This document shows positions 23,771 through 54,800 of a DNA stretch of 64,000 bases, in pieces. Both the position numbers and the translations under genes were made by a program. The DNA is from an uncultured Tateyamaria sp. Lineage in GTDB: Bacteria > Pseudomonadota > Alphaproteobacteria > Rhodobacterales > Rhodobacteraceae. Every line of letters begins with the position of its first letter. Position 1 is the stretch's first letter. The stretch spans positions 62,001 through 126,000 of the forward strand of contig NZ_CANLAG010000008.1 in assembly GCF_947488715.1 (NCBI RefSeq), written 5' to 3'. A model generated the notes under the pieces. It searched no databases. It worked only from the letters and a program-made list of their open reading frames with translations, and was not told the DNA's origin.

Positions 23771-23881
23771 TTTTTTTGTTGTCGAACGGGGGCCTCTGCG
23801 CATAGCCTTTCTTTACCGAGCGTCAAACGGGGCAACCAAGACCTCTGTTCGTGCGCACACAAGTTTGTCTGGGAGGAAAAC

Positions 23882-24907: not shown

Positions 24908-24913
24908 GCGATC

Positions 24914-24977
24914 TTGGGGTCCTGCCTTGCGCGGGGCCCCAACCATCCCGAAGGCGACGGCAAGACCGGCTCGGGAT
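24914..24977 (+). terminator. Two hairpins between dctP and dctQ (attenuator or mRNA-stability element)
   Basis: Hairpin one pairs TTGGGGTCC (24914-24922) with GGGCCCCAA (24934-24942). Hairpin two pairs ATCCCGA (24945-24951) with TCGGGAT (24971-24977) and is followed by TTT. Partial termination or protection of the dctP message here would give more binding protein than permease. Confidence 0.6.
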
Positions 24978-24996
24978 TTTCAAGAAACAGGGGGAT

Positions 24997-25845: not shown

Positions 25846-25848
25846 GTC

Positions 25849-27570: not shown

Positions 27571-27579
27571 GATGGGATC

Positions 27580-28524: not shown

Positions 28525-28527
28525 GCC

Positions 28528-31813: not shown

Positions 31814-31827
31814 CTGGGGTCAAATTG

Positions 31828-34786: not shown

Positions 34787-34789
34787 GGT

Positions 34790-36145: not shown

Positions 36146-36234
36146 TCCGCCCTCTCCCTTTTTGCGCAGACTAGCACGAATGCCCCTTGGCGCATGTGAT
36201 AAATGCCGCCACTCTGCAAATCGGGAGGACAAGA

Positions 36235-37278
36235 ATGAACGTGTTGCTGATCGGGATGGGCATGGTTGCCCAGACCCATGTTTGTGCATTGCGGGATGCC
36301 GGAAACGGTGTGCGGTTAAGTGGTGTTCTGGGTCGCGACCCTGACCGAACGTCGGCGTTTTGCGCCGCTGCGTCCGAGACGGTTGGGCATCCGGTTTCTG
36401 CGTTCACAGATAGTGCGGCGGCGTTGGCATCAGAGCCGGATATGGCGATCCTGATCACGCCACCCGATGCGCGTGCCCCGTTTGCGGATGCGCTGGCCCA
36501 CGCGGGCATTCCCACTCTCATGGAGAAACCGATTGAGCGCACGTTGGAGGCCGCACGCGGGATTGTTGCGACCTATGTGCAGGCCAATGTGCCGCTCGCT
36601 CTCTGTTTCCAGCATCGCACCCGTGCGGCGGCGCAGGATTTGCGGACGCGTTTGGCCACTGGCGCGCTGGGCGAGATTGTCCATGTGGACATTCGGGTGC
36701 CGTGGTGGCGGGATCAAGCGTATTACGATGCGCCCGGTCGCGGCAGCTATGCCCGTGATGGCGGTGGTGTGATGATCAACCAGGCCATCCACACGCTCGA
36801 TCTCGCGCTTTGGATTGCCGGGCCTGTTGCGCGCGTTCAGGCGCAGATGCAGACCAGCCCGCTGCACCACATGGAGGCCGAAGACATTGCATCTGCGCTG
36901 TTGCGTTTTGCATCGGGTGCGACAGGTGTCCTGAGTGCGACGACGTGCGCCTATCCCGGCACCACAGAGAGCATTGCGCTGACCACGACACGCGCGCAGG
37001 TGCATCTGTCTGGCGACACGCTGCGCATCGACTGGCATGATGGCGCGACAGAGACGCGCGCACCTGCCGCGGATGCGGGAACGGGTGGGGGTGCTGATCC
37101 GATGGCGTTCACCCATGCGTGGCATCAGGCGGTGATCGAGGATTTTGCGGCGGCGCTGCGCGATGATCGCCCACCTCTTGCGCCGCCTTCTGACGCGCTG
37201 CACGTGCACGCCGTCATTCACGCCATGGAGCAAGCCGCCCGGCGCGGCACAACCGAAGAGGTACCCACATGTCCCTGA
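36235..37278 (+). CDS. Gfo/Idh/MocA-family oxidoreductase 1
   Basis: A 347-residue NAD(P)-dependent sugar oxidoreductase. VLLIGMGMVAQTHVCALRDA is the dinucleotide site, LMEKPIERT holds the conserved Glu-Lys-Pro, and GGGVMINQAIHTLDLALWIA holds the catalytic histidine. GGGAGGACAAGA is a strong ribosome site for the ATG at 36235, setting this start over the longer frame. Substrate is unknown; relatives oxidise inositols, glucosides and other sugars at one carbon. It is first in a rightward operon with three more members of the family and uxuA, divergent from uxaC. Confidence 0.9.
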   Translation: MNVLLIGMGMVAQTHVCALRDAGNGVRLSGVLGRDPDRTSAFCAAASETVGHPVSAFTDSAAALASEPDMAILITPPDARAPFADALAHAGIPTLMEKPIERTLEAARGIVATYVQANVPLALCFQHRTRAAAQDLRTRLATGALGEIVHVDIRVPWWRDQAYYDAPGRGSYARDGGGVMINQAIHTLDLALWIAGPVARVQAQMQTSPLHHMEAEDIASALLRFASGATGVLSATTCAYPGTTESIALTTTRAQVHLSGDTLRIDWHDGATETRAPAADAGTGGGADPMAFTHAWHQAVIEDFAAALRDDRPPLAPPSDALHVHAVIHAMEQAARRGTTEEVPTCP

Positions 37279-38276
37279 GTTTCATTGCGCTGGGGTTGGA
37301 CCACCGCCACATCTACGGCATGACCGAAAACATGCAGCGCGTCGGCGCGCGGTGTCTGGGGTACTGGACAGAGGGTGATCCGCAGCCATTGGAAGGCTAT
37401 GTGAAACGGTTCCCCGATATGCCGCGTTTTGACACGCTCGAGGCGACCTTGGGGGCCGGGGCGGATTTGGCGCTGGTGTCGGCGGTGCCTGCGGACCGTG
37501 CCACGCTTGCGGTGCGTGCCATGCAGGCGGGCCACGACGTGATGACGGACAAGCCGGGGTGTACAACCCACGCGCAACTGGATCAAATCAAGGCCTGTGT
37601 GGCCGAAACTGGCCGCATCTGGTCCATCAACTTTTCCGAACGGTTCGAGGTGCCAAGCGTCACGCTGGCGGACCAATTGGTGCAGGACGGTGCCATTGGT
37701 CGTGTTGTGCATACGACGGGTCTGGGGCCGCATCGGTTGAACCGTGCGACACGGCCCGACTGGTTTTTTGAGCGTCAAAGATACGGCGGCGTCTTGACCG
37801 ACATCGCGTCGCATCAGATTGACCAGTTCCTGCATTTTACCGGGTCTGACGCTGCCGAGGTGACAATGGCGCACGTGGCCAACCATGCGAACCTAGCCGA
37901 TGCGGGATTGCAGGACTTTGGCGAACTTAGCCTGCGGTCTGACCGCGCCTCCGGGTATATCCGGGTTGACTGGTATACGCCCGATGCCCTGCCCAATTGG
38001 GGGGACGGGCGGCTGACCCTGCTCGGGACAGAGGGCTATATCGAGCTGCGCAAATACATCGATGTTGGCGGGCGCGACGGCACCGACAGCGTTGTCCTTG
38101 TGAATAGAGACCGATGCGAGGTGCTGGATGGGCGCGACGCGGGCCTGCCCTATTTCGGACGGTTGGCAGATGATATCGCGCACCGAACTGAGACGGCGAT
38201 GACGCAGGCGCATTGCTTTCGCGTGATGGAACTGGCGCTGGACGCACAGGCTCTGGCCGAACGGAGTGACGCATGA
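37269..38276 (+). CDS. Gfo/Idh/MocA-family oxidoreductase 2 (atypical cofactor motif)
   Basis: A 335-residue Gfo/Idh/MocA-like protein. The usual GxGxxG is replaced by IALGLDHRHIYGMTENM, a variant found in one branch of the family. MTDKPGCTT replaces the common EKP with DKP, and GVLTDIASHQIDQFLHF retains the histidine region. LGPHRLNRATRPDWFFERQR is a substrate-loop candidate. It overlaps the preceding gene by 10 bases and the following one by four. The altered dinucleotide motif may mean a different cofactor geometry; activity is unproven. Confidence 0.85.
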   Translation: MSLSFIALGLDHRHIYGMTENMQRVGARCLGYWTEGDPQPLEGYVKRFPDMPRFDTLEATLGAGADLALVSAVPADRATLAVRAMQAGHDVMTDKPGCTTHAQLDQIKACVAETGRIWSINFSERFEVPSVTLADQLVQDGAIGRVVHTTGLGPHRLNRATRPDWFFERQRYGGVLTDIASHQIDQFLHFTGSDAAEVTMAHVANHANLADAGLQDFGELSLRSDRASGYIRVDWYTPDALPNWGDGRLTLLGTEGYIELRKYIDVGGRDGTDSVVLVNRDRCEVLDGRDAGLPYFGRLADDIAHRTETAMTQAHCFRVMELALDAQALAERSDA

Positions 38277-39316
38277 TCCGGGTTGCCATTCTGGGCGGCG
38301 GCATCGGTGCGCAGCATCTGGACGGTTACCGCGCGCTGGATGATTTCCAAGTCACGCATCTGGTGGATCAGGATGCAGACCGGCTGGCGGCCCTGTGTGA
38401 TGGCGACATCGTTGGGCTGACAGAGATTGACGATGCACTGGCTTCGGATGTCGACGTGATCGACATTTGTCTGCCTCCGCATTTGCACGTCCCGATCACC
38501 CTTGCAGCACTTGCAGCCGGTAAACACGTGATCTGTGAAAAGCCGCTGGCAACGTCCATGGCCCAGATTGCCGAGATGCGTGCAGCAGCGCAAGACGCAG
38601 GTCGGCACGTCTTTCCAGTGTTCCAGTACAGGTTTGGACCCGCCTTTTCCGCTTTGGCGCAATTGCGCGCGGCGGGCCTGTTGGGCGTGCCTCGGGCGGC
38701 GGCGATTGAAACCCATTGGAACCGTGGCGTGGATTATTATGCGATACCGTGGCGCGGCACCTGGCCCGGAGAGCAGGGGGGTGCCGTGTTGGGTCACGCG
38801 ATCCATGCGCACGATCTGTTGTCACATGTGATGGCGCCGGTGTCTGGCGTGACCGCGCGGCTGGGGACGTTGATCAACCCGATCGAGACCGAGGATACCG
38901 CCGCCATACTGTTTGATCTGGAAGGGGGTGGCCTGGCCACCAGTTCGATCACCCTGGGTGCTGCGACGGATGAAACGCGGTTGCGTCTGGTCTATGAGCA
39001 CCTGACAGCAACGTCAGATACGCACCCGTACAGCCCGTCCGAAGGTACATGGCGTTTTGACGCCCGCGACTCCGCACAACAGGCGCAGGTGGATAAGATC
39101 GTAGCGGGTTGCGCTGATGCGCCCATAGGTTTCGTGGGTGGTCTGGCGGAAATCGCCAAGGCATTGCGCGGTGAGGCCAATCAGGCTGTTACATTTGAGG
39201 ACGGGGCGAGGTCGATTGCGCTGGTCACCGCGATTTATGCATCGCATCGCACAGGCGCACGCATTGAACTGCCTCTGCCAGATACGCACCCGATGACAAA
39301 AGGATGGCAACCATGA
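38273..39316 (+). CDS. Gfo/Idh/MocA-family oxidoreductase 3
   Basis: A 347-residue NAD(P)-dependent oxidoreductase. VAILGGGIGAQHLDGYRALD is the cofactor site, ICEKPLATSMAQ the EKP motif, and GGAVLGHAIHAHDLLSHVMA the catalytic histidine region. FNPIETEDTAAILFDL-type strands complete the C-terminal barrel half. It overlaps its neighbours on both sides by ATGA, so translation is coupled through genes 2, 3 and uxuA. Substrate unknown; the context suggests a uronate derivative or glycoside. Confidence 0.88.
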   Translation: MIRVAILGGGIGAQHLDGYRALDDFQVTHLVDQDADRLAALCDGDIVGLTEIDDALASDVDVIDICLPPHLHVPITLAALAAGKHVICEKPLATSMAQIAEMRAAAQDAGRHVFPVFQYRFGPAFSALAQLRAAGLLGVPRAAAIETHWNRGVDYYAIPWRGTWPGEQGGAVLGHAIHAHDLLSHVMAPVSGVTARLGTLINPIETEDTAAILFDLEGGGLATSSITLGAATDETRLRLVYEHLTATSDTHPYSPSEGTWRFDARDSAQQAQVDKIVAGCADAPIGFVGGLAEIAKALRGEANQAVTFEDGARSIALVTAIYASHRTGARIELPLPDTHPMTKGWQP

Positions 39317-40494
39317 TCGAATGCTGGCGCTGGTTCGGCCCTGATGACCCGACACAATTGTCAGACCTGCCGCAGGTGGGCGCGACTGGTGTGGTCACCG
39401 CCTTGCATCAATTTGCGCCCGGAGAGATCTGGCCACGCAAGGCTGTGGCGGAACGCAAGACATTGATCGAGGCAGCTGGTTTGCGCTGGGAAGTGGTCGA
39501 AAGCCTGCCCGTGTCGGAGGCGATCAAGACCCAAGGGCCAGACATGGCAGCGCATCTTGATGCGTACAAGGAAAGCCTTGCCGCGCTGGCCGCCGAAGGC
39601 ATCGAAACGGTGTGCTACAATTTCATGCCGATCCTCGACTGGACCCGCACCGAGATGCGCGCGCCACAAGCCCACGGTGGTACCGCGATGCTGTTCGATT
39701 TGCCCACCTTTGCGGCGTTCGACATGCACATCCTGGGCCGTGCTAATGCGCGGGACGACTATCCAGAGGATGTGCACGAAGCAGCGACAGAGGTTTTAGC
39801 GTCACTGGATGAAAACGCACGGGCGCGTTTGACACGCACGATCATTGCGGGCCTTCCGGGGGCCAATGACGGTTGGACGCTAGACGATGTGCGCGCCCGG
39901 TTGTCGACCTATGATGGTATCACTGCGGATCGGTTACGGCAGAACCTGATCGACTTTTTGTCCGAGGTGGCACCGGTGGCTGATCGCCTTGGCATGCGTC
40001 TGTGTTGCCATCCGGACGACCCGCCGTTTTCGTTGTTGGGGTTACCGAGGGTCATGTCCACGACGGATGATTACGCGCGCATTATCGAAGCAGTGGATAC
40101 GCCTGCGAATGGTGCGACGCTGTGCACAGGGTCCATGGGGGTTGATCCCGGATTTGATGCGTCTGACTTTGTCCGTCGGCTGGGGCCGCGCATTCACTTT
40201 GCCCATCTGCGCAACACCAAGCGGTTGCCGTCCCCGGACCCATCGCGGGCCAGCTTTTTCGAAGCGCCGCATTTGCAGGGCGACACCGATATGGTGGCGA
40301 CGTTGCGCGCGCTGATGGCTGAAGAGGCGCGCCGCCGGGCGGAGGGTCGTGATGACCATGCCATCCCAATGCGGCCTGATCATGGGCAGGAATTGTTGAT
40401 GGACCGTACACGCGACAGCCTGCCGGGCTATCCGCTGATCGGCCGTATGCGCGGGTTGGCTGAGCTGCGCGGCATCATGGCGGCACTTGCATGA
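39313..40494 (+). CDS. uxuA: Mannonate dehydratase
   Basis: A 393-residue mannonate dehydratase. It starts MIECWRWFGPDDPTQLSDLP, with GATGVVTALHQFAPGEIWP, VCYNFMPILDWTRTEMRAP, RLCCHPDDPPFSLLGLPR, CTGSMGVDPGF and FAHLRNTKRL, the last three supplying Cys, His and Arg of the manganese site. It dehydrates D-mannonate to 2-keto-3-deoxygluconate, the substrate of the KdgK encoded at 32718. The ATG at 39313 overlaps the previous stop by four bases, which is preferred over the ATG at 39304. Confidence 0.97.
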   Translation: MIECWRWFGPDDPTQLSDLPQVGATGVVTALHQFAPGEIWPRKAVAERKTLIEAAGLRWEVVESLPVSEAIKTQGPDMAAHLDAYKESLAALAAEGIETVCYNFMPILDWTRTEMRAPQAHGGTAMLFDLPTFAAFDMHILGRANARDDYPEDVHEAATEVLASLDENARARLTRTIIAGLPGANDGWTLDDVRARLSTYDGITADRLRQNLIDFLSEVAPVADRLGMRLCCHPDDPPFSLLGLPRVMSTTDDYARIIEAVDTPANGATLCTGSMGVDPGFDASDFVRRLGPRIHFAHLRNTKRLPSPDPSRASFFEAPHLQGDTDMVATLRALMAEEARRRAEGRDDHAIPMRPDHGQELLMDRTRDSLPGYPLIGRMRGLAELRGIMAALA

Positions 40495-41495
40495 TACGGG
40501 TTGGGGTGGCCGGTGCCGGGTTGATCGGCAAGCAACATATCGCCGCCATTGAACGCGCGCCAGGGGTGCAACTGTCGGCGGTGTTCGACCCGGTGGTCGA
40601 GGATGGGCCGTGGCCACGTGCGGGCAGTTTGGCGGAACTGGCAGGGATGTCGGACGGGGTGATCCTTGCCGTGCCCAATGCGCTGCATGCGCCCATGGCG
40701 ATGGAGTTGATCGGGCTGGGTACACCTATGCTGATCGAAAAGCCGCTGACCGGGACCGCCGCCGAAGGGGCGGAGATCGTGGCGGCGTCTGCGCAGTCAG
40801 GTGTCCCTGTACTGGTCGGGCATCACCGGCGGCACAATCCGATCGTTGCCAAGGCGCGTGAGATCATCACCTCGGGGGCTTTGGGACAGATCACGACGGT
40901 GCATGGGCAGTGCTGGTTGCCCAAGCCGGACCACTATTATGACGCGGCGTGGCGGCAGGGGGCGGGGGCCGGGCCGCTGTTCATCAACCTGATCCATGAC
41001 GTCGATGTGTTGATGCACCTGTGTGGCCCTGTTTCGCAGGTGCAGGCCTTTGAAAGCAACGCAGTGCGCGAGGCCGAAGCCGAGGAGGTGAGCGTGGCGA
41101 TCCTGCGCTTTGCCAGCGGCGCGCTGGGGACGCTGAACCTGTCGGACGTGGCGCTTGGGCCGTGGAGCTGGGAGCTGACGGCGGGGGAAAACCCGGCCTA
41201 TCCCAAGACGGATCAATCCGCCTATCTGATCGGGGGGCGGCAGGGGTCACTGGCGCTGCCAAACCTGACCGTATGGTCACAGGCCGAGGGGCCGGATTGG
41301 TGGGCGCCGATTGATCAGACGCGCGTGCCCCTGCCGTTGGCGGATTCGCTTGCTGCGCAGATCGGCCATTTCGCGCACGTGATCGAAGGCAAGGCCGCGC
41401 CGCTGGTGTCTGCGGCGGACGGATTGCGCGCGGTGCAGGTGATCGAGGCGATCAAGGCCGCCGCCCGCACCGGCACGCCGGTGGACATCGAATAA
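40491..41495 (+). CDS. Gfo/Idh/MocA-family oxidoreductase 4
   Basis: A 334-residue family member. VGVAGAGLIGKQHIAAIERA is the cofactor site, MLIEKPLTGTAAEG the EKP motif, VGHHRRHNPIVAKAREI and GAGPLFINLIHDVDVLMHLC the active-site regions with the catalytic His. It is similar to enzymes annotated as inositol or glucose-type dehydrogenases, but substrate is not decided. Coupled to uxuA by ATGA. It is the last gene of the five-gene run; a 147-bp gap with its own ribosome site follows before the next dehydrogenase. Confidence 0.9.
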   Translation: MIRVGVAGAGLIGKQHIAAIERAPGVQLSAVFDPVVEDGPWPRAGSLAELAGMSDGVILAVPNALHAPMAMELIGLGTPMLIEKPLTGTAAEGAEIVAASAQSGVPVLVGHHRRHNPIVAKAREIITSGALGQITTVHGQCWLPKPDHYYDAAWRQGAGAGPLFINLIHDVDVLMHLCGPVSQVQAFESNAVREAEAEEVSVAILRFASGALGTLNLSDVALGPWSWELTAGENPAYPKTDQSAYLIGGRQGSLALPNLTVWSQAEGPDWWAPIDQTRVPLPLADSLAAQIGHFAHVIEGKAAPLVSAADGLRAVQVIEAIKAAARTGTPVDIE

Positions 41496-41642
41496 ACGCT
41501 CGTTTTGCAGCAATCCTGTGCTAGCGTGGACCCGCGCGCACTGCGCGCCGCGATAGGGCAGGGGGTGTCTTTTGGACCTGCTCGGCGTCCGCGCATGACG
41601 TGAAACCCCACCCTGAAAACGAACCACAAAGAGGAGCAGCTG

Positions 41643-42554
41643 ATGCCGTCAGTTGGTGTGATCGGATTGGGTGACATGGGCAGCGGGCTTGCCAAGAACC
41701 TGATCGCAAATGGATTTGAGACATGGGGCCGTGACTTGCTGGACCACCGGCAGCGCGCGTTCGAAGAGATGGGCGGCCATACGGCTACGTCTACGGCGGA
41801 GGTGGGCCGCAATGCGCAGGCCGTTTTCGTGATGGTGATGAAGGGCGCGGAGGCACATGAGGTGATCCTTGGCCCCGACGGGCTGGCCGAGACGATGGCG
41901 CCGGGCGGCGTCATCCTGCTGACCGCGACGGTGAAACCGGCCGAGGCGCGGGCGATTGCCCATGGCCTTGGGGGCCGAGACCTGCACCTGATCGACAGCC
42001 CGGTATCGGGCGGATTTCCGGGCGCGCAGGCGGGAACGCTTACCATGATGGCGGCGGGTACAAATGTGGCGATGGACATCGCTCGCCCTGTGATGGAGGC
42101 GGTGTCCGCCAATATCCACCGCGTGGGCACGGATGCGGGCGATGGTCAGACCGTCAAGGCGTGCCTGCAATCGCTGATCGGCGCGCAGTTTTCGGCGACG
42201 TTTGAAGCGGCGGCATTGGCGGCCAAGGCGGGCGTGCCGGGGCAGGTGATCCTCGATGTCTTCTCCACCTCGTCCGCGGGGTGCGGGGTCGTGAACAACG
42301 CGTTGGAAAAGATCATCGATCGGCAGTTTGAGGGCACGGGCAGCCACATAAACACGATGCACAAGGATCTGACGATCTCGATGGCTTTGGGCGAGGAGTT
42401 GGGCGTGCCGCTCCATACGGCGGCGTCGGCGATGCAGGTGTTTCATGCCGGGCGCACGCGCTATCCCGACGGTGACAATTGGACCTGTACGCAGGTGATC
42501 GAAGAGATCGTGGGCGCGGAGCTGCACCGCGACGCGGCCAAGGTGACGCGATGA
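41643..42554 (+). CDS. Beta-hydroxyacid dehydrogenase (L-threonate/3-hydroxyisobutyrate dehydrogenase family)
   Basis: A 303-residue enzyme. VGVIGLGDMGSGLAKNLIAN is the cofactor motif, LIDSPVSGGFPGAQAGTLTM the substrate signature and DGQTVKACLQSLIGAQ the catalytic lysine. The GAGTLTMMAAG and CGVVNNALEKI pattern resembles the L-threonate dehydrogenase (LtnD) branch. AAGAGGAGCAGCTG gives a strong ribosome site. It is coupled by ATGA to a TIM-barrel isomerase gene, a pairing seen in tetronate and related acid pathways. Confidence 0.88.
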   Translation: MPSVGVIGLGDMGSGLAKNLIANGFETWGRDLLDHRQRAFEEMGGHTATSTAEVGRNAQAVFVMVMKGAEAHEVILGPDGLAETMAPGGVILLTATVKPAEARAIAHGLGGRDLHLIDSPVSGGFPGAQAGTLTMMAAGTNVAMDIARPVMEAVSANIHRVGTDAGDGQTVKACLQSLIGAQFSATFEAAALAAKAGVPGQVILDVFSTSSAGCGVVNNALEKIIDRQFEGTGSHINTMHKDLTISMALGEELGVPLHTAASAMQVFHAGRTRYPDGDNWTCTQVIEEIVGAELHRDAAKVTR

Positions 42555-43417
42555 AGCTGGGGGTCATTACCGACGGGATCAGCCGCGATCTGACCCATGC
42601 CGTCGATGTGATGGATGAGTTTGGTCTGGACTATGCAGAGCTGCAATTCGTCGGCGATACCGAGGTAGGCGATCACAGCGCAGGCGAGATCCGCGAGATC
42701 GACGCGCTGTTGCGTGATCGGGGCAAGCCGGTGTCCTGCCTCAGCCGCCATATCTTTGCCGGGACCACCAGCGCCAATCGCGCGGGCGACGCGCTGCACA
42801 CACAGCACATGGATGCGCTGAAACGGGTGATCGACATGGCGCATGTGGTGGGCAGTCCGCTGGTGCGGATCATGACCCAGAAAAAGGAACAGATCCTGTG
42901 GGGGTCGCATGGCGCGGAAAAGTGGAACGTGGCGCATGGCGCGTGGGACACGATGGCGCCGATGATCGCCCCCGCGGTCGAGCTGGCCCGCGCCGAGGGT
43001 ATCACGCTGGTGGTCGAGACGGGCAATGGCACGATGGTCAACTCGAACTACACCGCGCGGCGTTTGATTGATGAGCTGGACGCCCGCGACGCGCTGAAGG
43101 TGCTGTGGGATCCGGCCAACAATTGCTGGTGTCACGAGCTGGCCTATCCCGACGGGTACGAAGAGGTGCGCGGCGGTTATCTGGGGCACGTCCATGTCAA
43201 GGATGTGCAGGTGGACACACCCCGCGCCATGCTTGAGGTGCGCGAGTTGGGGCAGGGCCAATTGGGGCCGCTGTTTGCGCCCATGGCCGATGCGCTGCGT
43301 GCGGATGGCTACGATGGTGTGATCAGTTTCGAGAGCGTCTATCACCCCGGCAATGGCGACTTTGAGGCGGGGTTTCGGGCCTGTGTGGATCGGTTCAAGG
43401 CAATTTTTGGCGATTGA
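42551..43417 (+). CDS. Sugar phosphate isomerase/epimerase family TIM-barrel protein
   Basis: A 288-residue AP-endonuclease-2-like TIM barrel. It starts MKLGVITDGISRDLTHAVDV, with YAELQFVGDTEVGDHSAGEI, ITLVVETGNGTMVNSNYTAR (metal Glu), LWDPANNCWCHELAYP, GYLGHVHVKDVQVD (metal His) and GVISFESVYHPGNGDFEAGF (last Glu). Such enzymes isomerise or epimerise ketoses and keto acids using a divalent metal. The start overlaps the upstream dehydrogenase by four bases. The two genes are probably one functional unit downstream of the uronate operon. Confidence 0.87.
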   Translation: MKLGVITDGISRDLTHAVDVMDEFGLDYAELQFVGDTEVGDHSAGEIREIDALLRDRGKPVSCLSRHIFAGTTSANRAGDALHTQHMDALKRVIDMAHVVGSPLVRIMTQKKEQILWGSHGAEKWNVAHGAWDTMAPMIAPAVELARAEGITLVVETGNGTMVNSNYTARRLIDELDARDALKVLWDPANNCWCHELAYPDGYEEVRGGYLGHVHVKDVQVDTPRAMLEVRELGQGQLGPLFAPMADALRADGYDGVISFESVYHPGNGDFEAGFRACVDRFKAIFGD

Positions 43418-44905: not shown

Positions 44906-46516
44906 ATGACACCACACGTCGTTGCCCAACTTTCTGCCCTTCCGGACCGAAGCCCGGCCTATGCCATTGTTGGCGAAGTCGATCTGGTGGTTGTCCGGTT
45001 TGATGACGACATATCGGTGTTCTACGGACGGTGTCTGCACCGCGGGGCGCTGATGTCGGACGGGTTTGTGCGCGGCGATAACCTGATCTGTGGGGTGCAT
45101 GACTGGGACTACCGCCTCGACAGCGGGGTCAGCGAATACGCCAATGACGAGGCGCTGCCCAAGTTCAAAAGCTGGTTGGATGGCGGTGACATCTGTGTCG
45201 ATGCGGACGAAATCAATGCGTGGGGCCACGCCAACCCTCAACCGTTCAACCGCGATGATTACCTGGGTCTTTATGCCGACACGGCGCATGGCACCGAGGA
45301 GGAACCCTATGCCGGGTTGATCCGGCAATACGCCCGCGACGGGTTGTCCAAGACGGGCCACCACGGTGCGGTCGATGCGATGGGCGTGCCGCGCGTGCAA
45401 CTGCCCGATTGGGATGACATTCAGCTGCTGACCGCGCAGCTGCACAAGCCGCCGCTCTTGGACGACGATCCGGTCGGGACAGAAGTGGTGATTGGCCCCA
45501 ACGCGCAGAAACCGCTAAAGCTGGATATCCCGTTGTTCGTGTCCGACATGTCCTATGGCGCGCTGTCGGAGCCGGCCAAGATCGCGCTGGCGCGGGGCGC
45601 CGAACTGGCCGGGACGGGCATCTGTTCGGGCGAGGGCGGGATGCTGCCCGAAGAGCAGGAGGCGAACTCGCGCTACTTCTACGAACTGGCGTCGGCGCGG
45701 TTCGGGTTTTCTTGGGACAAGGTACAGAAGTGCCAGGCGTTCCATTTCAAAGGCGGACAAGGGGCCAAGACGGGCACGGGCGGGCACCTGCCCGGCAACA
45801 AGGTGCATGGCAAGATTGCCGACGTCCGAGGGCTGGACGAGGGCGAAGATGCGATTTCACCGTCGCGGTTCCCGGACTGGACGGACACCGCACAGATCAA
45901 GGATTTCGCGGACGAGGTGCGGGATCGGACAGGGGGTATTCCTGTCGGGTACAAGCTGTCGGCCCAGCATATTGAGAAAGACATCGACGCGGCCCTTGAG
46001 GTCGGCGTCGACTACATCATTCTGGACGGACGTGGCGGGGGAACCGGCGCGGCCCCGATCATCTTCCGCGACAATATCTCGGTGCCGACGATCCCCGCGC
46101 TGGCCCGCGCCCGCGCGCATCTGGACCGGTTGGAGCGGCACGACGTGTCGCTGGTGATCACCGGCGGGTTGCGCAAACCGGCGGATTTCATCAAGGCGCT
46201 GGCGCTGGGTGCGGATGCGGTGGCATTGTCGAACTCGGCCATGCAGGCCATTGGCTGCATCGCGATGCGGGCGTGTCATACCAACAATTGCCCCGTGGGC
46301 ATCGCCAGCCAGAAACCGCATCTGGTCAATCGGCTGGTGGTCGAGAAATCTGCGCGGCAACTGGCCAACTTCTTTGAGGCGTCGACCGAGCTGATGCAGG
46401 TGATGGCGCGGGCCTGTGGCCACGATCACCTGTCGAAATTCAATATCGATGACCTGACCACGTGGAAAAAGGACATGTCCGAAATCTCGGGTGTCCCGTT
46501 TGGAGGTGTAGCATGA
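44906..46516 (+). CDS. Rieske domain fused to glutamate synthase-type FMN/Fe-S domain
   Basis: A 536-residue fusion. Residues 1-95 form a Rieske domain with complete ligands: C43-x-H45 in CLHRGAL and C62-x2-H65 in ICGVHDW. From about residue 150 it is a glutamate synthase FMN-domain barrel: PLFVSDMSYGALSEPAKIAL, CSGEGGMLPEEQ, GGQGAKTGTGGHLPG, DGRGGGTGAAPII and the three-cysteine cluster motif CIAMRACHTNNCPVGIAS. No glutaminase domain is present. ATG 44906 has AGGACG 9 bases upstream and is chosen over 44858. It overlaps the next gene, another Rieske fusion, by ATGA. Electron flow between the Rieske centre, Fe-S cluster and FMN is inferred; reaction unknown. Confidence 0.85.
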   Translation: MTPHVVAQLSALPDRSPAYAIVGEVDLVVVRFDDDISVFYGRCLHRGALMSDGFVRGDNLICGVHDWDYRLDSGVSEYANDEALPKFKSWLDGGDICVDADEINAWGHANPQPFNRDDYLGLYADTAHGTEEEPYAGLIRQYARDGLSKTGHHGAVDAMGVPRVQLPDWDDIQLLTAQLHKPPLLDDDPVGTEVVIGPNAQKPLKLDIPLFVSDMSYGALSEPAKIALARGAELAGTGICSGEGGMLPEEQEANSRYFYELASARFGFSWDKVQKCQAFHFKGGQGAKTGTGGHLPGNKVHGKIADVRGLDEGEDAISPSRFPDWTDTAQIKDFADEVRDRTGGIPVGYKLSAQHIEKDIDAALEVGVDYIILDGRGGGTGAAPIIFRDNISVPTIPALARARAHLDRLERHDVSLVITGGLRKPADFIKALALGADAVALSNSAMQAIGCIAMRACHTNNCPVGIASQKPHLVNRLVVEKSARQLANFFEASTELMQVMARACGHDHLSKFNIDDLTTWKKDMSEISGVPFGGVA

Positions 46517-48486
46517 CCGATCAACTCGACTGGATCCGCGTGGGTCAAACCGGCGACCTGCCCGAAGGCCGCGTGAAAACCGTGACGGCGCGTACTGTGT
46601 CCATCTGTCTGTCGCATTTCGACGGGCAATGGGCTGCGATGGACAACCACTGCCCGCACCAGCGTGGACCCTTGGGCGAGGGGTCGATCGAAGTTGGCGA
46701 AGAAGGCAAATGCTGGATCCGTTGCCCGTGGCACGGCTGGGATTTTGATCCGCTGACAGGGGCGCCTCCGGGCGGGCATGAGGATACGGGTCAGAAGATC
46801 TATCCGCTCAAGATCGAGGGCGACGAGATTTTTGTGGGCCTTGAGCCCGAGCCGCCGCATGAGCGCACCGTGTCCGACCAGATGGCCGAGAGCATGGTGA
46901 ACTGGGGCATCAAGCACGTGTTCGGCATGGTCGGCCACTCGAACCTCGGCCTGGCGGATGCGATCCGTATGCGGGTCGAGGCGGGCGAGATGAAGTATGT
47001 GGGCATCCGGCACGAAGGGGCCGCCGCCTTTGCCGCATCGGCCTATGGCAAGCTGACGGGGCATCCCGCGGGCTGTCTGACCATTGCGGGGCCGGGGGCG
47101 ACCAACCTGCTCACCGGACTCTGGGATGCCAAGGTGGACCGCGCGCCGGTGCTGGCGCTGACCGGGCAGGTACAAACGCAGGTCTTTGGCCCCGGTGCGT
47201 TCCAGGACATCGATCTGGCGTCGGCCTTTGATGCGGTCAGCCGATTCAGCCAGACGGTGCTGAGCACGTCGAAACATTCTGAACTGGTGTCGCTGGCGAT
47301 GAAGAACGCGCTGGTCGAGCGAGACGTGTCGCACCTGATCTTTCCTGATGACATGCAGACCAACGCGTCGGACGCGCCCGCATCGGCGCCGGATGGGCGT
47401 ATGGGCCGCGCGGTGGTCAAGCCGTCGGACGATGATGTTGCCGATGCGCTCAAGATGCTGAACGGGGCCAAGCGGCCTATTCTGGTGATCGGCCACGGCG
47501 CTTGGGATCATATGGAGGCCATCGAGAAACTGGCCGTGGATCTGGGCGCGCCCGTGCTGACCACGTTCAAGGGCAAGGGGCTGATCGCGGATGATCACCC
47601 CAACGCCGCCGGTGTGCTGGGCCGTTCCGGTACGCCGATTGCGTCGTGGTTCATGAACGAGGCGGACCTGATCCTGACCCTTGGCACGTCGTTCTCAAAC
47701 CACACAGGGATCGAGCCATCCAAGCCGATCATCCAGGTGGATTTTGAACGGATGCAACTGGGCAAGTTCCACCCCGTCGACCTGCCCATCTGGGCCGAGA
47801 TCGGCGCGTTCTGCGATGCGATCAAGGGCGGGTTGTCCCGACCCGCCGATGCGCCAGACCAAATCGCCGAACTGGCGGGCCGCTGGGACATCTGGCGGCG
47901 CGAGAAACGCTCCCGCATGGAGGAGGAAACGGCCAAGGGCATCCACGCCTTTGCCATCTTTGACGCGCTCAGCCGCGTGGCTCCGGCGGATGCGATCATC
48001 GCTGTGGACGTGGGCAATAACACCTACTCCTTTGGCCGCTATTTCGAAACCAAGGGCCAGCGCGTGCTGATGTCAGGATATCTCGGATCCATTGGTTTCG
48101 GCCTGCCTGCGGCCATGGGTGCGTGGGCGGCGACACAGGATTTCGACTGGCTCAAGGGCCGCAAGATCATCTCGATCTCGGGTGACGGTGGCTTTGGTCA
48201 ATACGCGATGGAACTGACCACGGCTGTCAAATACGGCATGGATATCACCCATGTCCTCTTGCACAACGGCGAGCTGGGCAAGATCACCAAAGAGCAGAAA
48301 TCCGGCGAATGGCCGGTGTGGGAAACGTCCCTGCACAACCCGTCCTTTGCCGCCTTTGCCAAGATTTGCGGCGCGCATGGGGAAAAGGTCGTGTCGTCGG
48401 ATGCGATCCAAGCCGCGTTGCAAAAAGCGTTGGACGTCGATGGCCCGGCGCTTGTCGAAATCATGACAGATGCAGAGCTGGTGTAG
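46513..48486 (+). CDS. Rieske domain fused to pyruvate-oxidase-like ThDP enzyme
   Basis: A 657-residue fusion. Residues 1-112 are a Rieske domain with C47-x-H49 (NHCPHQRGPLG) and C71-x2-H74 (RCPWHGWDFDP). The rest is a complete ThDP-dependent enzyme resembling PoxB/acetolactate synthase: catalytic Glu168 in GIRHEGAAAFAASAYG, GPGATNLLTGLWDAKVDRAP, a central domain, and the cofactor motif GDGGFGQY (557) to N585 in LLHN. It would decarboxylate a 2-ketoacid and pass electrons or carbanion to an acceptor. It is translationally coupled to the Rieske-FMN gene. A hairpin follows. Substrate unknown. Confidence 0.87.
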   Translation: MTDQLDWIRVGQTGDLPEGRVKTVTARTVSICLSHFDGQWAAMDNHCPHQRGPLGEGSIEVGEEGKCWIRCPWHGWDFDPLTGAPPGGHEDTGQKIYPLKIEGDEIFVGLEPEPPHERTVSDQMAESMVNWGIKHVFGMVGHSNLGLADAIRMRVEAGEMKYVGIRHEGAAAFAASAYGKLTGHPAGCLTIAGPGATNLLTGLWDAKVDRAPVLALTGQVQTQVFGPGAFQDIDLASAFDAVSRFSQTVLSTSKHSELVSLAMKNALVERDVSHLIFPDDMQTNASDAPASAPDGRMGRAVVKPSDDDVADALKMLNGAKRPILVIGHGAWDHMEAIEKLAVDLGAPVLTTFKGKGLIADDHPNAAGVLGRSGTPIASWFMNEADLILTLGTSFSNHTGIEPSKPIIQVDFERMQLGKFHPVDLPIWAEIGAFCDAIKGGLSRPADAPDQIAELAGRWDIWRREKRSRMEEETAKGIHAFAIFDALSRVAPADAIIAVDVGNNTYSFGRYFETKGQRVLMSGYLGSIGFGLPAAMGAWAATQDFDWLKGRKIISISGDGGFGQYAMELTTAVKYGMDITHVLLHNGELGKITKEQKSGEWPVWETSLHNPSFAAFAKICGAHGEKVVSSDAIQAALQKALDVDGPALVEIMTDAELV

Positions 48487-48507
48487 GGTGCGCATTCACT
48501 GCGCACC
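48487..48507. terminator. Bidirectional hairpin GGTGCGCA/TGCGCACC
   Basis: An 8-bp perfect stem (48487-48494 with 48500-48507) and a 5-base loop between the convergent Rieske-ThDP and pxpA genes, starting right after the stop codon. It has the same stem sequence family as the hairpin at 16619-16639. Confidence 0.65.
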
Positions 48508-48516
48508 TCTGTGATC

Positions 48517-49284
48517 TCAACCGGTGCGCCCGTCAAAGGTGCGCACCGCGATCCCTTCGGCCTCGAGCGTGCGGCGGACGCTTGCGGCGATGTCCACGGC
48601 CTCAGGGGTGTCGCCGTGACAGCAGATGCTGTCGATGGGCGTGTCGATCCGGGTGCCGTCTTCGGTGATGATCGCCTGTGCCTTGACCATTTCGACCATC
48701 CGTTTGCCTGCAAGTTCCGCGTCGTGGATGACCGCGCCCGGCAACCGACGATCCACAAGGGTTGCATCAGAGTTATAGGCCCGGTCGGCAAAAATCTCGC
48801 AGGCAAATGCCGCGCCAAGGCTGCGTGCCGCACGTTCCTGTGCCGTGGCGGCCAACACCATCAGGATCGCGCCGGGATGTGCAGATAGCGCGGCTTCGTA
48901 GCAGGCGCGCGCCATCTCTTCGTTTTCCGAGGTCATGTTGCCAAGAGCACCGTGCAGCTTGATATGCCGGACCTCGGCACCCAGCGCACGGGCCATCCCC
49001 AGTGTGGCGCCAACCTGGCATCGGATCGAGTTTTGCAGTGACGCAATCGGCATGTCGATCCGGCGACGGCCAAAGCCCTGGATGTCCGCAAAACCGGGAT
49101 GCGACCCGACGCCGACACCGTTTTCGATTGCCATCGACATGGTGCTCGCCATCACGTCGGGGTCCCCGGCATGCGCACCACAAGCAATATTCGCGGACGT
49201 CACCGTTTTGAGCAACGCCGCGTCATCCCCCATCTTCCAGGGGCCAAAGCTTTCGCCCATATCCGCGTTCAGATCGACCTGCAT
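48517..49284 (-). CDS. pxpA: 5-oxoprolinase subunit A (LamB/YcsF family)
   Basis: A 255-residue LamB/YcsF protein. MQVDLNADMGESFGPWKMGD, SANIACGAHAGDPDVMASTM, GVGSHPGFADIQGFGRRRID, VRHIKLHGALGNM and SICCHGDTPEAVDIA are diagnostic. With PxpB and PxpC it forms the ATP-dependent prokaryotic 5-oxoprolinase, opening pyroglutamate to glutamate in the cytoplasm. The start at 49284 matches the family exactly; an open frame to 49335 adds an unconserved lead. It is the third gene of a pxpB-pxpC-pxpA order, 4 bp after pxpC. Confidence 0.96.
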   Translation of the reverse strand: MQVDLNADMGESFGPWKMGDDAALLKTVTSANIACGAHAGDPDVMASTMSMAIENGVGVGSHPGFADIQGFGRRRIDMPIASLQNSIRCQVGATLGMARALGAEVRHIKLHGALGNMTSENEEMARACYEAALSAHPGAILMVLAATAQERAARSLGAAFACEIFADRAYNSDATLVDRRLPGAVIHDAELAGKRMVEMVKAQAIITEDGTRIDTPIDSICCHGDTPEAVDIAASVRRTLEAEGIAVRTFDGRTG

Positions 49285-49288
49285 ATGT

Positions 49289-50311
49289 TCATCCTTCGTC
49301 AAGTGGCGCGTCAGCGGCGGATACAACACCGCCAATCAATTGATAGGACAGCAAATCCTGCATCGTGGCAGGATCCCGGACCAAAGGTGCAACCTGTTGC
49401 GACAGCTTGCGTTCCTCGGCGGTGGCGCGGGCCTGTTGTGCGGCCCCTTCCTCAAGCGTCAGGAAGGTAAATCGAATTTCAGCACCCGCGGGTGCCTGCG
49501 CGATGCGGGGCAAATCACAGGGCAATACCGTTCCGATGCGTGGATAACCCCCGGTGGTCTGGCTTTCGGCCATCAAGACAAACGGGGTGCCGTCGCCAGT
49601 GACCTGAATGTCGCCCGGCACAATCACTTCGCTGACGATGCTGAGCGCCTTGGGGTTAGAGAACCCTTCGCCGTCGCTGTCCATGCGCACGCCCTGGCGA
49701 TTGGCGCGCGGGTCTCTGCGGAACGTAGTGTCTTCGAACCGCGCGCGGATGGCGGGGTCAAAGTCCTCGGTTTGCATGCTGGGTACAATGCGCACCGTCC
49801 CGCCGGTGAACCGTGCATCGGGCGTCAAAGTCATGCCGGTGTCCCGGCCCTTGTCTGCGCCAATGGCGAGCGTGTTACCTGTGCTGACAAGAGCGCCCAG
49901 GCCGACCGATTGATGCGTTGCACGTGACCCCAGCGCGGCATCCGTCGCGAACCCGCCGCCGACATGCAGGTATCCATAGGTCCCCGACCGCGTTGGCCCG
50001 ATCACCAGTTTCGCACCTTTTGGCACCAAGTGGCTTGCGTTCCAGGCTGCCGTCTCGCCGTCAATTTGCGCGGTCATCACAGCCCCGGTCAGGGCGATGC
50101 GGATGTCCTCGGTGGCTTCGAACGTGCCGCCGGTCCCGACCATTTCCAGAACGGCACACTCGACGCTCTGGCGCAACAGGGCCGCCCCCTCGTGAACGGC
50201 GCGCAGATCGGCGGCCCCTCCTTGGGTCAGGCCCATAGCGAGGTAACCGGGACGACCAAGATCCTGTACCGCGACGCCCGGACCCGCGTGATGTACGATC
50301 AGCGCCCTCAT
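49289..50311 (-). CDS. pxpC: 5-oxoprolinase subunit C (biotin-dependent carboxylase-like, KipA)
   Basis: A 340-residue PxpC/KipA protein. ALIVHHAGPGVAVQDLGRPG and YLAMGLTQGGAADLRAV are the N-terminal signature; LTGAVMTAQIDGE, GYLHVGGGFAT, LGSRATHQSVGLG and the C-terminal MAESQTTGGYPRIGTVLPCD with LPRIAQAPAGAEIRF complete the cyclophilin-like fold. It pairs with PxpB to phosphorylate or activate 5-oxoproline. Its start overlaps the pxpB stop by four bases (ATGA). Length is normal. Confidence 0.95.
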   Translation of the reverse strand: MRALIVHHAGPGVAVQDLGRPGYLAMGLTQGGAADLRAVHEGAALLRQSVECAVLEMVGTGGTFEATEDIRIALTGAVMTAQIDGETAAWNASHLVPKGAKLVIGPTRSGTYGYLHVGGGFATDAALGSRATHQSVGLGALVSTGNTLAIGADKGRDTGMTLTPDARFTGGTVRIVPSMQTEDFDPAIRARFEDTTFRRDPRANRQGVRMDSDGEGFSNPKALSIVSEVIVPGDIQVTGDGTPFVLMAESQTTGGYPRIGTVLPCDLPRIAQAPAGAEIRFTFLTLEEGAAQQARATAEERKLSQQVAPLVRDPATMQDLLSYQLIGGVVSAADAPLDEG

Positions 50312-51054
50312 GCCAGCACCTCTTGCACAGCACCGCCCGCACCGTCGCTATTGTGCGCCTCGATCCGGGCCAGTTCAGCTTCGGACACATCGGTGAACTG
50401 GATTTCGTCACCGGGGGAGAGCGGAAAAGGGGTCGCGCCGTTAGGCCGGAAACAGGCGAATGCGGTCTGGCCAACATGGCGCCACCCGGTTGGCGTATCT
50501 TTGGCAAAGAGGCAAACCTGGCGCACAGCGGCAACGAGCGCACCAGCCGGTACGTTGGGGGTTAGCCCGACTTGGCGCGGAATGTTCCACGCCTCGCCCA
50601 ATGTTCCAAGGTACGGTTGACCCGGCGCAAAACCAAGCGTCAGAACCCGCAGTCGCGCCGCTGTCAAATCGGCCAGCGCCTGCGCTTCGTCCAGTCCGGC
50701 GGCCTCTGCGGCTTCGGCCAGTTGCGGCGCGCGGCTGCCACCAAAGGCGGCGGGAATGGTCCACAGCGAGCGACCGGCGGGCAAGGGCGCATTGCTCCAG
50801 TCCTGACCGGCCAACATGTCCGCCAGTTGATCACGTATGCCGTCAAACCGATGCTCTGCCAGATCGACGCGAAAGAACGCGGATACCAACGTGCTGCTGC
50901 TTTCCGTCACCTCGGTCCAACCCTGATCATCAACAGCGCCGCGGAATGCGATGGCGGCACGATTGGCCGCGTCCGTTGCCCGTTCACCAAAGGTGACAAG
51001 CACGCCATTCAGCCCAACGGACTGGATCTTGGGGGTGTAGGTTGGGTTAGTCAT
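50308..51054 (-). CDS. pxpB: 5-oxoprolinase subunit B (KipI-like)
   Basis: A 248-residue PxpB/KipI protein. GLNGVLVTFGERATDAANRA, the central VESSSTLVSAFFRVD-type strand, and LTLGFAPGQPYLGTLGEAWN with PRQVGLTPNVPAGALVAAV are typical, as is GWRHVGQTAFACFRPN near the C-terminus. It is first in the pxpBCA set. The ycaQ-like gene ends 39 bp upstream on the same strand, so these genes may be transcribed from the LacI gene's promoter. Confidence 0.94.
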   Translation of the reverse strand: MTNPTYTPKIQSVGLNGVLVTFGERATDAANRAAIAFRGAVDDQGWTEVTESSSTLVSAFFRVDLAEHRFDGIRDQLADMLAGQDWSNAPLPAGRSLWTIPAAFGGSRAPQLAEAAEAAGLDEAQALADLTAARLRVLTLGFAPGQPYLGTLGEAWNIPRQVGLTPNVPAGALVAAVRQVCLFAKDTPTGWRHVGQTAFACFRPNGATPFPLSPGDEIQFTDVSEAELARIEAHNSDGAGGAVQEVLA

Positions 51055-53465: not shown

Positions 53466-53542
53466 GGCCCCGTGGCTCAACTGGATAGAGCAGCCCCCTC
53501 CTAAGGGGCAGGTTGCAGGTTCGAATCCTGCCGGGGTCGCCA
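53466..53542 (+). tRNA. tRNA-Arg (anticodon CCT)
   Basis: A 77-nt tRNA with an encoded CCA end (53540-53542). The acceptor stem pairs GGCCCCG (53466-53472) with CGGGGTC (53532-53538), including one G-T pair. The D arm is GCTC/GAGC, the anticodon stem GCCCC/GGGGC with loop CTCCTAA giving anticodon CCT, and the T arm is GCAGG-TTCGAAT-CCTGC. It reads AGG arginine codons. A tyrosine integrase gene begins about 105 bp downstream, so its 3' end is the probable attachment site of the island. Confidence 0.96.
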
Positions 53543-53648
53543 AAAACCTCATGAAATCAAATGCTAGAAGCTCCTCTTGACTGGCGAAATTGCGGCGGAT
53601 ACCCTTTCACATAACTTACACACTTTCACAGTTTTGGGCGTTTGATCT

Positions 53649-54800
53649 GTGGGAACAGAAAAACACACGATTCTGGGCGGGAAAGTCCACGTTTACAGGC
53701 GGGAAAACAGCCCTTTTTGGCAATGCTCGTCATACATGAACAGCAAGAACCGTCGCACTTCCACAAAGGAAGAAAGCCTTCGACTTGCCAAAGAATTTGC
53801 CGAAGACTGGTACCTGACACTTCGCGGAAAACAGGCGCGGGGCGAGCTCCCGAATGACCGAACTTTTGCGTTTGCTGCCGAAAAATTCTTAGTCGAGTTT
53901 GAAGCAGATACGTTGGGAGAGCGAAATCCCAAGTGTCTAAAGAACCATCAAAATCATGTGCGGCTACATCTCTCACCATTTTTCGGGCGGATGAGATTGG
54001 CGGAAATCTCGACCACAACCATCCAAGAGTACCGACTTGCCAGAATGCAATCGAGTTATCGTGGCAAGCCGCCCGCAGCTGCTACGATCCAAAAAGAAAT
54101 TGTCACGCTTCGAATGACACTCAAGGCAGCGGTTCGGCACGGATGGTTGTCGCACATGCCAGACATGTCTGCTCCCTACCGAAGCACATCGAAAGTGTCG
54201 CACCGCGCATGGTTTTCGCCAGATGAGTACAAGCAACTGTACACCGCGACGCGGGCAAACATTAGGGCGATGGTCAATAGCAAACATCGCCACCTTGCCG
54301 AGCAGCTGCACGACAAAGTTTTGTTCATGGCCAATACCGGTATTCGTCCTGATGAAGCCAACTGGCTTGAATACCGGGATGTCGAGATCGTTGAAGACGA
54401 CGCCACCGGCGAAACGATCCTCGAAATCGAAGTGCGCGGTAAGCGCGGGGTAGGATATTGCAAAAGCACCACCGGTGCTGTTCGACCTTATGAAAGGATG
54501 GTTGAACGTAATCAGCCGGAGCCGACCGACCGTCTCTTCCCTGCTGATCACAAAAAGCAGTTCAACCGGATACTAGAAGAGCAAGGCTTGAAGTTCGACC
54601 GCCAAGGCAACAGGCGTACGCTCTATTCCTTGAGGCACAGTTACATCTCGTTCCGCTTGCTTGAAGGGGCGGACATCTATCAGATTGCCAAAAACTGCCG
54701 GACGAGCGTTGAGATGATTGAAAAGCACTATGCAGTTCATCTCAAGAACAGCTTGGATGCGGCGGCGATCAACGTGCGCAAACCAAGACCAGCCAAGTGA
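53649..54800 (+). CDS. int: Tyrosine-type site-specific integrase
   Basis: A 383-residue tyrosine recombinase. An N-terminal arm-binding part (residues 1-60, VHVYRRENSPFWQCSSYMNS) and a SAM-like core-binding domain (about 75-180) precede the catalytic domain. Active-site residues visible are Arg in ANTGIRPDEANWLEYRD, the His-x-x-Arg box as LYSLRHSYISF, and the Tyr in EMIEKHYAVHL. The start is a GTG at 53649; the first internal ATG (MNSKNRR) would delete the arm-binding part. It directs integration at the adjacent tRNA-Arg gene. Codon use and composition are lower in G+C than the upstream genes. Confidence 0.93.
   Translation: MGTEKHTILGGKVHVYRRENSPFWQCSSYMNSKNRRTSTKEESLRLAKEFAEDWYLTLRGKQARGELPNDRTFAFAAEKFLVEFEADTLGERNPKCLKNHQNHVRLHLSPFFGRMRLAEISTTTIQEYRLARMQSSYRGKPPAAATIQKEIVTLRMTLKAAVRHGWLSHMPDMSAPYRSTSKVSHRAWFSPDEYKQLYTATRANIRAMVNSKHRHLAEQLHDKVLFMANTGIRPDEANWLEYRDVEIVEDDATGETILEIEVRGKRGVGYCKSTTGAVRPYERMVERNQPEPTDRLFPADHKKQFNRILEEQGLKFDRQGNRRTLYSLRHSYISFRLLEGADIYQIAKNCRTSVEMIEKHYAVHLKNSLDAAAINVRKPRPAK

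What the first reader, a model, noticed from the sequence alone, without database searches (positions are those of the whole stretch)
44906..48486. Two-gene operon with a Rieske domain fused to both proteins: Rieske-GltS(FMN/Fe-S) and Rieske-ThDP
Seen: two translationally coupled genes, each with a complete N-terminal Rieske ligand set (C-x-H ... C-x2-H). One is fused to a glutamate-synthase-type FMN barrel with its 3-Cys cluster but no glutaminase domain; the other to a full ThDP enzyme with catalytic Glu and GDG...N motif. Known: glutamate synthase FMN domains move electrons from Fe-S to an imine; PoxB-like ThDP enzymes decarboxylate 2-ketoacids and pass electrons on. Inference: the pair may form one redox complex, for example oxidative 2-ketoacid or amino-sugar-acid conversion coupled to reductive amination, with Rieske centres as relays. 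I do not know of a described system of this form.
Basis: partly seen in the sequence, partly recalled or inferred. Interest (0 to 1): 0.85.

Follow-up and report, generated by a model that had tools for sequence, protein, structure and literature searches.

The report
Three-Rieske membrane-linked redox gene system
Two neighbouring bacterial enzymes each carry an added iron-sulfur electron-relay domain; they belong to a larger conserved gene set that looks like a membrane-linked electron-transfer system of unknown substrate, for which the literature searched here gave no description.

Summary
Window 44906-46516 encodes Rieske + FMN-barrel glutamate-synthase core without glutaminase domain; 46513-48486 encodes Rieske + complete ThDP enzyme; they overlap by ATGA. 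Both fusions are conserved: of 248 family genomes, 24 have Rieske-GltS and 14 Rieske-ThDP, 13 of the 14 having both. Three haloarchaeal plasmids carry both. The pair is not the whole set: a third Rieske protein, fused to a ferric-reductase-type (MsrQ-like) membrane domain, is in 13 of the 14 ThDP genomes, next to a four-Cys membrane-anchored protein. One genome of another family holds antiporter, Rieske-GltS, small membrane protein, ferric-reductase-Rieske, four-Cys protein, small membrane protein and Rieske-ThDP in one line. In this Tateyamaria genome the membrane part lies elsewhere. In a sister GltS clade two CDGSH domains, also His-ligated 2Fe-2S, replace the Rieske. Best reading: a PoxB-like ThDP enzyme and an FMN dehydrogenase pass electrons through His-ligated 2Fe-2S domains to a membrane cytochrome b, possibly under stress control. 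Substrates, direction and cofactors are untested. The sugar-acid neighbours are almost confined to Tateyamaria.

The parts
44906..46516 (+). Rieske-GltS gene (536 aa from the conserved start; open frame from 44858)
44915..45136 (+). Rieske [2Fe-2S] domain, ligands C59, H61, C78, H81 (552-aa numbering)
45494..46420 (+). Glu_synthase FMN-barrel domain; no glutaminase domain
46256..46291 (+). 3Fe-4S cysteine motif C467-x5-C473-x4-C478, aligned to A. brasilense GltS C1102/C1108/C1113
46513..48486 (+). Rieske-ThDP gene (657 aa), ATGA overlap with gene 1
46531..46764 (+). Rieske [2Fe-2S] domain, ligands C47, H49, C71, H74
46867..48462 (+). complete ThDP enzyme (N, M, C domains), closest solved structure E. 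coli PoxB; E168, F230/Q231, I591, E594 as in pyruvate oxidase, K590 in place of LpPOX F479 (LpPOX names recalled)

Best explanation
The two genes encode the soluble dehydrogenases of a conserved membrane-linked redox system, possibly under stress control. Shown: both carry complete Rieske ligand sets; they co-occur with each other and with a ferric-reductase-domain/Rieske membrane protein whose gene is next to that of a membrane-anchored four-Cys protein; a seven-gene line with all parts exists. Inferred: the ThDP protein oxidatively decarboxylates a 2-oxo acid like PoxB, but passes electrons from ThDP/FAD to its own N-terminal Rieske cluster instead of using PoxB's C-terminal membrane segment; that Rieske hands electrons to the related Rieske domain of the membrane heme-b protein, and so to quinone or to the extracytoplasmic four-Cys protein. 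The GltS-type FMN/3Fe-4S protein is a second electron entry (or exit) of the same chain, most likely an FMN amino- or hydroxy-acid dehydrogenase that can supply the 2-oxo acid. The antiporter balances protons and cations.
For: Co-occurrence in 248 family genomes: Rieske-ThDP 14, Rieske-GltS 24, FRD-Rieske 23; overlaps 13 (ThDP/GltS), 13 (ThDP/FRD) and 15 (FRD/GltS). Seven genes in line in G294, another family; of 80 ThDP loci, 27 hold both FRD-Rieske and a gene-1 homologue in the fetched stretch (21 by gene calls), and in 11 the GltS and ThDP genes are about 2.5 kb apart with the membrane genes between them. Both fusions on haloarchaeal plasmids. ThDP domain: best structure match PoxB by sequence (E 1.4e-64) and by fold (3eya, E 6e-43), model pLDDT 84.5. 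ThDP-Rieske and FRD-Rieske domains are related (34.5% over 110 aa, E 8e-20). A His-ligated 2Fe-2S module is kept when the N-terminal domain differs: CDGSH-GltS directly before Rieske-ThDP in L071 and L082. Stress control: ECF sigma gene in 6 and anti-sigma gene in 4 of 80 loci and beside the G294 set; redox genes around haloarchaeal copies.
Against: Of 24 genomes with Rieske-GltS, 11 have no Rieske-ThDP, and of 23 with FRD-Rieske, 10 have none, so the parts also act apart. In 43 of 80 ThDP loci no FRD-Rieske lies in the fetched stretch. No FRD-Rieske was found on haloarchaeal plasmids; their chromosomes were not searched. The Rieske domain of gene 1 shows no significant match to that of FRD-Rieske (E 3.6). 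ECF sigma genes are near only a small minority of loci. FAD, heme, Fe-S and FMN content are unmeasured. The P0001 model is poor (pLDDT 65). The p values ignore shared ancestry. A catabolic role is not excluded: 13 of 67 system loci have a TRAP/TTT carboxylate transporter in the stretch, against 1 of 25 shorter control loci, weak either way.
Confidence: 0.42

Rival explanations
1. A soluble bifunctional complex: the ThDP enzyme oxidises a 2-oxo acid and its electrons reduce an imine on the GltS FMN (reductive amination), with the Rieske centres as relays.
For: ATGA overlap in the window; GltS and ThDP genes within 150 bp in 42 of 55 loci that hold both (leaving out L108, whose match is a distant GltS-like protein); FMN-barrel and 3Fe-4S motifs of GltS kept; haloarchaeal plasmids have the pair without a detected FRD-Rieske gene.
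Against: The membrane module co-occurs with the ThDP protein as strongly as GltS does. Rieske-GltS without Rieske-ThDP in 11 of 24 genomes. Reported A. brasilense GltS potentials with 2-oxoglutarate are -270 mV (FMN) and -190 mV (3Fe-4S) (PMC8097209, passages seen); Rieske and CDGSH clusters are usually higher (recalled), so reduction of FMN through them would be uphill. No glutaminase domain, and residues in several GltS-conserved motifs differ.
Confidence: 0.15
2. A redox-stress or electrophile-defence system: the enzymes detoxify a reactive carbonyl or quinone, or keep extracytoplasmic thiols reduced through the membrane cytochrome (MsrQ-like), with the Rieske/CDGSH clusters partly acting as redox sensors.
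For: ECF sigma in 6 and anti-sigma in 4 of 80 loci and beside the G294 set. CDGSH-GltS loci hold a GST of the glutathionyl-hydroquinone reductase (YqjG) kind in 10 of 15 (one a partial match) and hemerythrin in 8 of 15. Of four haloarchaeal plasmid stretches, four have a quinol-monooxygenase-type gene, three a merA-annotated gene and a GST-N gene, two a redoxin-domain gene. Of two Rhizobium plasmids inspected (five hits), one has a chlorite-dismutase-family gene and one has Dsb and peroxiredoxin-like genes near FRD-Rieske.
Against: None of the GST or hemerythrin genes was found in the 80 Rieske-ThDP loci, the three with CDGSH-GltS included. A PoxB-like active site needs a 2-oxo acid. No expression data.
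Confidence: 0.28
3. Catabolism of a compound from the surrounding sugar-acid cluster (uxuA, altronate dehydratase, uronate isomerase-like, KDG kinase-like, TRAP transporter).
For: Same strand, 84 nt after the nucleotide-sugar dehydrogenase gene in the window.
Against: The five upstream genes tested are near the pair in 6 to 11 of 11 Tateyamaria loci and in none of 69 others, apart from a 52% uxuA in L063.
Confidence: 0.05

Closest known systems
E. coli PoxB / C. glutamicum PQO (pyruvate:quinone oxidoreductase)
   Same: ThDP domain order and fold, catalytic Glu, F-Q and I..E active-site residues
   Different: N-terminal Rieske domain added, no sequence beyond the ThDP C domain for PoxB's C-terminal membrane segment, K590 at the LpPOX F479 position, 25-28% identity
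Glutamate synthase alpha subunit (GltB) FMN/3Fe-4S domain
   Same: FMN barrel and C-x5-C-x4-C cluster motif
   Different: No glutaminase domain; N-terminal Rieske; changed motifs (HH of PPPHH lost, C256 and H310 in place of D and Q)
Type 5 CISD (two CDGSH motifs fused to GltS FMN domain; Lin 2011 PMC3174974, passages seen; also PMC5859297, passages seen)
   Same: Sister GltS core, 67-71% identical over residues ~140-551 in 12 checked proteins; N-terminal His-ligated 2Fe-2S module
   Different: Unrelated N-terminal domain; often beside GST and hemerythrin genes instead of Rieske-ThDP
MsrQ/YedZ and the FRD superfamily (Zhang 2013 PMC3591440, passages and section 12 seen; its figure legend lists a Rieske module in model M4)
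   Same: FRD membrane domain of the partner protein, which scores below cut-off against MsrQ (E 4e-8)
   Different: C-terminal Rieske; adjacent four-Cys membrane-anchored protein; linked to Rieske-ThDP and Rieske-GltS

Membership tests
PoxB-like ThDP oxidoreductase | complete TPP N/M/C domains with catalytic Glu and GDG motif | tested here: met
PoxB-like ThDP oxidoreductase | match to a curated pyruvate oxidase/dehydrogenase model above its cut-off | tested here: not met
   best is PRK08611, 371 bits against cut-off 742; none of the 25 shown of 56 models reached its cut-off
PoxB-like ThDP oxidoreductase | FAD bound and pyruvate oxidised | not testable with these tools
   needs purified protein
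Glutamate synthase | FMN barrel with 3Fe-4S Cys motif | tested here: met
Glutamate synthase | glutaminase domain supplying ammonia | tested here: not met
   no such Pfam domain; Rieske instead
Type 5 CISD | two CDGSH motifs fused to GltS FMN domain | tested here: not met
   P0001 has Rieske, no CDGSH
Rieske protein | C-x-H ... C-x2-H ligands in both proteins | tested here: met
Rieske protein | 2Fe-2S cluster present | not testable with these tools
   needs EPR/UV-vis
FRD/MsrQ (partner protein, outside the window) | ferric-reductase transmembrane domain | tested here: met
   Ferric_reduct E 8.5e-11 above cut-off for a relative; own-genome copy below the MsrQ cut-off

The most novel reading that the evidence does not exclude
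An undescribed electron-wiring system in which Rieske domains (or, in a sister clade, CDGSH domains) serve as interchangeable His-ligated 2Fe-2S plugs that connect an FMN dehydrogenase and a ThDP oxidative decarboxylase to a Rieske-carrying transmembrane cytochrome b, giving proton-coupled electron export from 2-oxo or amino acids under stress.
Probability: 0.35. Interest if true: 0.85.

Novelty: new variant of a known kind. Interest (0 to 1): 0.68.

Why it matters
If true, a ThDP decarboxylase and a glutamate-synthase-type flavoenzyme would be joined to the membrane through Rieske clusters, a use of Rieske domains for which I saw no report in the searches made. It would give a role to the Rieske-GltS and type 5 CISD proteins, for which the passages I saw state no function, and to FRD-Rieske fusions noted in 2013.

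Tried and rejected
Sugar-acid operon membership was rejected because the upstream genes are near the pair almost only in Tateyamaria. A role as the cell's ordinary glutamate synthase was rejected because the genome has a separate GltS-like 1510-aa frame. An orthologue of the bacterial antiporter in the haloarchaeal stretches was sought with cl4 and not found at E 1e-4, although other antiporter genes are annotated there. Carboxylate transporters as a substrate clue were counted and are too weak. The four-Cys protein has no Pfam, NCBIfam or convincing PDB match. The 2-oxoglutarate contact residues of GltS could not be checked because the paper was not held. No genome search centred on archaea was possible.

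In two Rhizobium plasmids and genomes G641/G759 the membrane module lies near another ThDP gene without a Rieske domain and a CoA transferase gene. I note this but did not follow it.

Rows dropped or classed by hand: the genome scan kept the best 80 of 175 relatives. Rieske-GltS genomes were classed by the part of the query matched (22 long matches, G157 partial, G184 split). L105 was left out of alignment A2 because its translation holds a stop codon; truncated or duplicate loci were left out of the conservation counts; of the 49 and 80 references printed, 35 and 43 were used beside the window proteins for A1 and A2. My simple gene caller hid some genes behind antisense frames, so gene-cluster counts are lower bounds; several were redone by tblastn.
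Full report
OBSERVATION. Both genes are as described. Gene 1 (44906-46516; open frame from 44858) holds a Rieske domain and a glutamate-synthase FMN-barrel domain with its 3-Cys motif and no glutaminase domain; gene 2 (46513-48486) holds a Rieske domain and a complete ThDP enzyme. Start of gene 2 and stop of gene 1 share ATGA. Ligand residues are invariant in alignments of 36 and 44 sequences, so the features are not chance. No NCBIfam model listed for either protein reached its cut-off (9 for gene 1; 25 shown of 56 for gene 2); annotated plasmid records name the relatives only 'glutamate synthase-related protein' and 'thiamine pyrophosphate-binding protein'.

WHERE IT IS FOUND. The window is from a Tateyamaria-like Rhodobacteraceae genome, judged by the nearest loci. 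Of 248 genomes of the family, 44 have a match to gene 1 at E 1e-100 or better; by the part of the query matched I class 24 as Rieske-GltS and 20 as matching only the GltS core or a fragment. Gene 2 is in 14 of 248 at E 1e-140 or better, 13 of them with Rieske-GltS; the exception, G194, has gene 2 near a contig end. In a phylum sample gene 2 is in 5 of 398 genomes, the window's own included. A scan of GTDB genomes gave 175 relatives of gene 2, of which the best 80 were kept. In 55 of the 80 a gene-1 homologue lies in the fetched stretch: 49 Rieske type, 3 CDGSH type, 3 cut by contig ends; in 42 of the 55 it is within 150 bp of gene 2, in 11 about 2.5 kb away with the membrane genes between, and L119 and L129 differ. 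Among 72,556 plasmid records, three haloarchaeal plasmids hold both fusions, 1.4, 4 and 17 kb apart; one Haloferax and one Mycobacteroides plasmid hold only the ThDP fusion.

A THIRD RIESKE PROTEIN. Near the ThDP gene the commonest further neighbours by gene clusters are a protein with a ferric-reductase membrane domain and a C-terminal Rieske domain (32 of 80 loci), a 250-aa membrane-anchored protein with four conserved Cys and no Pfam family (33), a Na/H-exchanger-family antiporter (22), and two small membrane proteins (15 and 11). By tblastn FRD-Rieske is in 37 of 80 stretches, in 36 of them within 320 bp of the four-Cys gene; the exception, L129, is a short contig. FRD-Rieske is in 23 of 248 family genomes at E 1e-50 or better and in 13 of the 14 with Rieske-ThDP; Fisher p is 2e-14 (ThDP with GltS), 1e-14 (ThDP with FRD) and 1e-12 (FRD with GltS), uncorrected for relatedness. 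In the window's own genome four membrane genes form a separate cluster on contig C2, about 46733-49186, minus strand. G294, of another family, has all seven genes in line next to an ECF sigma/anti-sigma pair. Among 21 further stretches, 20 had FRD-Rieske and in all 20 the four-Cys gene was adjacent, mostly without GltS or Rieske-ThDP nearby.

WHAT THE PROTEINS LOOK LIKE. Gene 2's model (pLDDT 84.5) matches E. coli PoxB and C. glutamicum pyruvate:quinone oxidoreductase best. By alignment it keeps L. plantarum pyruvate oxidase E59, F121, Q122, I480 and E483 (E168, F230, Q231, I591, E594), while F479 is replaced by the invariant K590 (LpPOX residue names and the numbering offset of 8 are recalled). 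Gene 1's model is poor (pLDDT 65) but its four best matches are glutamate synthases. The Rieske domains of the ThDP and FRD proteins are close (34.5%, E 8e-20); that of gene 1 matches the ThDP one weakly (19.5%, E 6e-5) and the FRD one not significantly. Hydropathy gives five membrane segments in FRD-Rieske and one at the N-terminus of the four-Cys protein; that the Rieske faces the cytosol and the Cys domain the periplasm is inference.

CDGSH SWAP. A sister clade (12 of 12 monophyletic, support 0.967) of the GltS core carries two CDGSH domains instead of Rieske; three haloarchaeal Rieske forms branch outside both, although the root (0.29) and the bacterial Rieske clade (0.10) are weakly supported. 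CDGSH-GltS is known as type 5 CISD (PMC3174974, PMC5859297; passages seen). In L071 and L082 a CDGSH-GltS sits directly before Rieske-ThDP. Both domain types bind 2Fe-2S with His ligands (established knowledge), so that kind of cluster seems to be what is needed there. Fifteen CDGSH-GltS stretches from the family hold a GST in 10 (one partial match) and hemerythrin in 8; one such GST matches YqjG at E 8e-130; none of 80 Rieske-ThDP loci shows these genes.

HOW IT PROBABLY WORKS. I take the ThDP protein as the main electron source (2-oxo acid decarboxylation), the Rieske as its outlet in place of PoxB's membrane segment, FRD-Rieske as the membrane acceptor, and the GltS-type protein as a second FMN dehydrogenase on the same line. 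Domain content and co-occurrence are shown; electron flow, direction, substrates and physical contacts are inferred. Sigma-factor genes (6 of 80 loci) and redox-stress neighbours in haloarchaea suggest, weakly, conditional expression.

KNOWN OR NEW. Searches of the held full-text library with Rieske, glutamate synthase, thiamine pyrophosphate, pyruvate oxidase, acetolactate synthase, CDGSH and MsrQ in several combinations gave no title or abstract on Rieske-GltS, Rieske-ThDP or this operon (two searches listed 20 of 110 and 10 of 52 papers); subscription papers are mostly not held. The FRD-Rieske architecture is listed in a 2013 figure legend (PMC3591440). I file the finding as a new variant: known enzyme types joined in a set for which I saw no description.

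Noticed in passing
window 53466-54800 and 57763-63302: tRNA-Arg followed by an integrase-like ORF (Pfam matches just below cut-off) and a type I restriction-modification set (R, M and S domains by Pfam): looks like an island inserted at the tRNA.
   Followed up: partly
window 48517-51054 (-): Convergent three-gene set LamB_YcsF / CT_A_B / CT_C_D, i.e. the 5-oxoprolinase PxpABC type (name recalled); present in 11 of 11 Tateyamaria loci and none of 69 others beside the pair.
   Followed up: partly
window 23813-43414: Large sugar-acid catabolic region: TRAP transporter, altronate and mannonate dehydratases, uronate isomerase-like, KDG kinase-like, several GFO/IDH and two phytanoyl-CoA dioxygenase-like ORFs (by Pfam UxuA, PhyH and altronate dehydratase, rest by eye).
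   Followed up: no
L186, L188, L193-L195, L199: Recurrent cassette LysR / YqjG-type GST / CDGSH-GltS / hemerythrin / second GST in Rhodobacteraceae, in part of 15 stretches.
   Followed up: partly
L176, L177, L200, L201: FRD-Rieske plus four-Cys module near a non-Rieske ThDP gene and a CaiB-type CoA transferase; the ThDP proteins are 46% identical between a Rhizobium plasmid and G759.
   Followed up: partly
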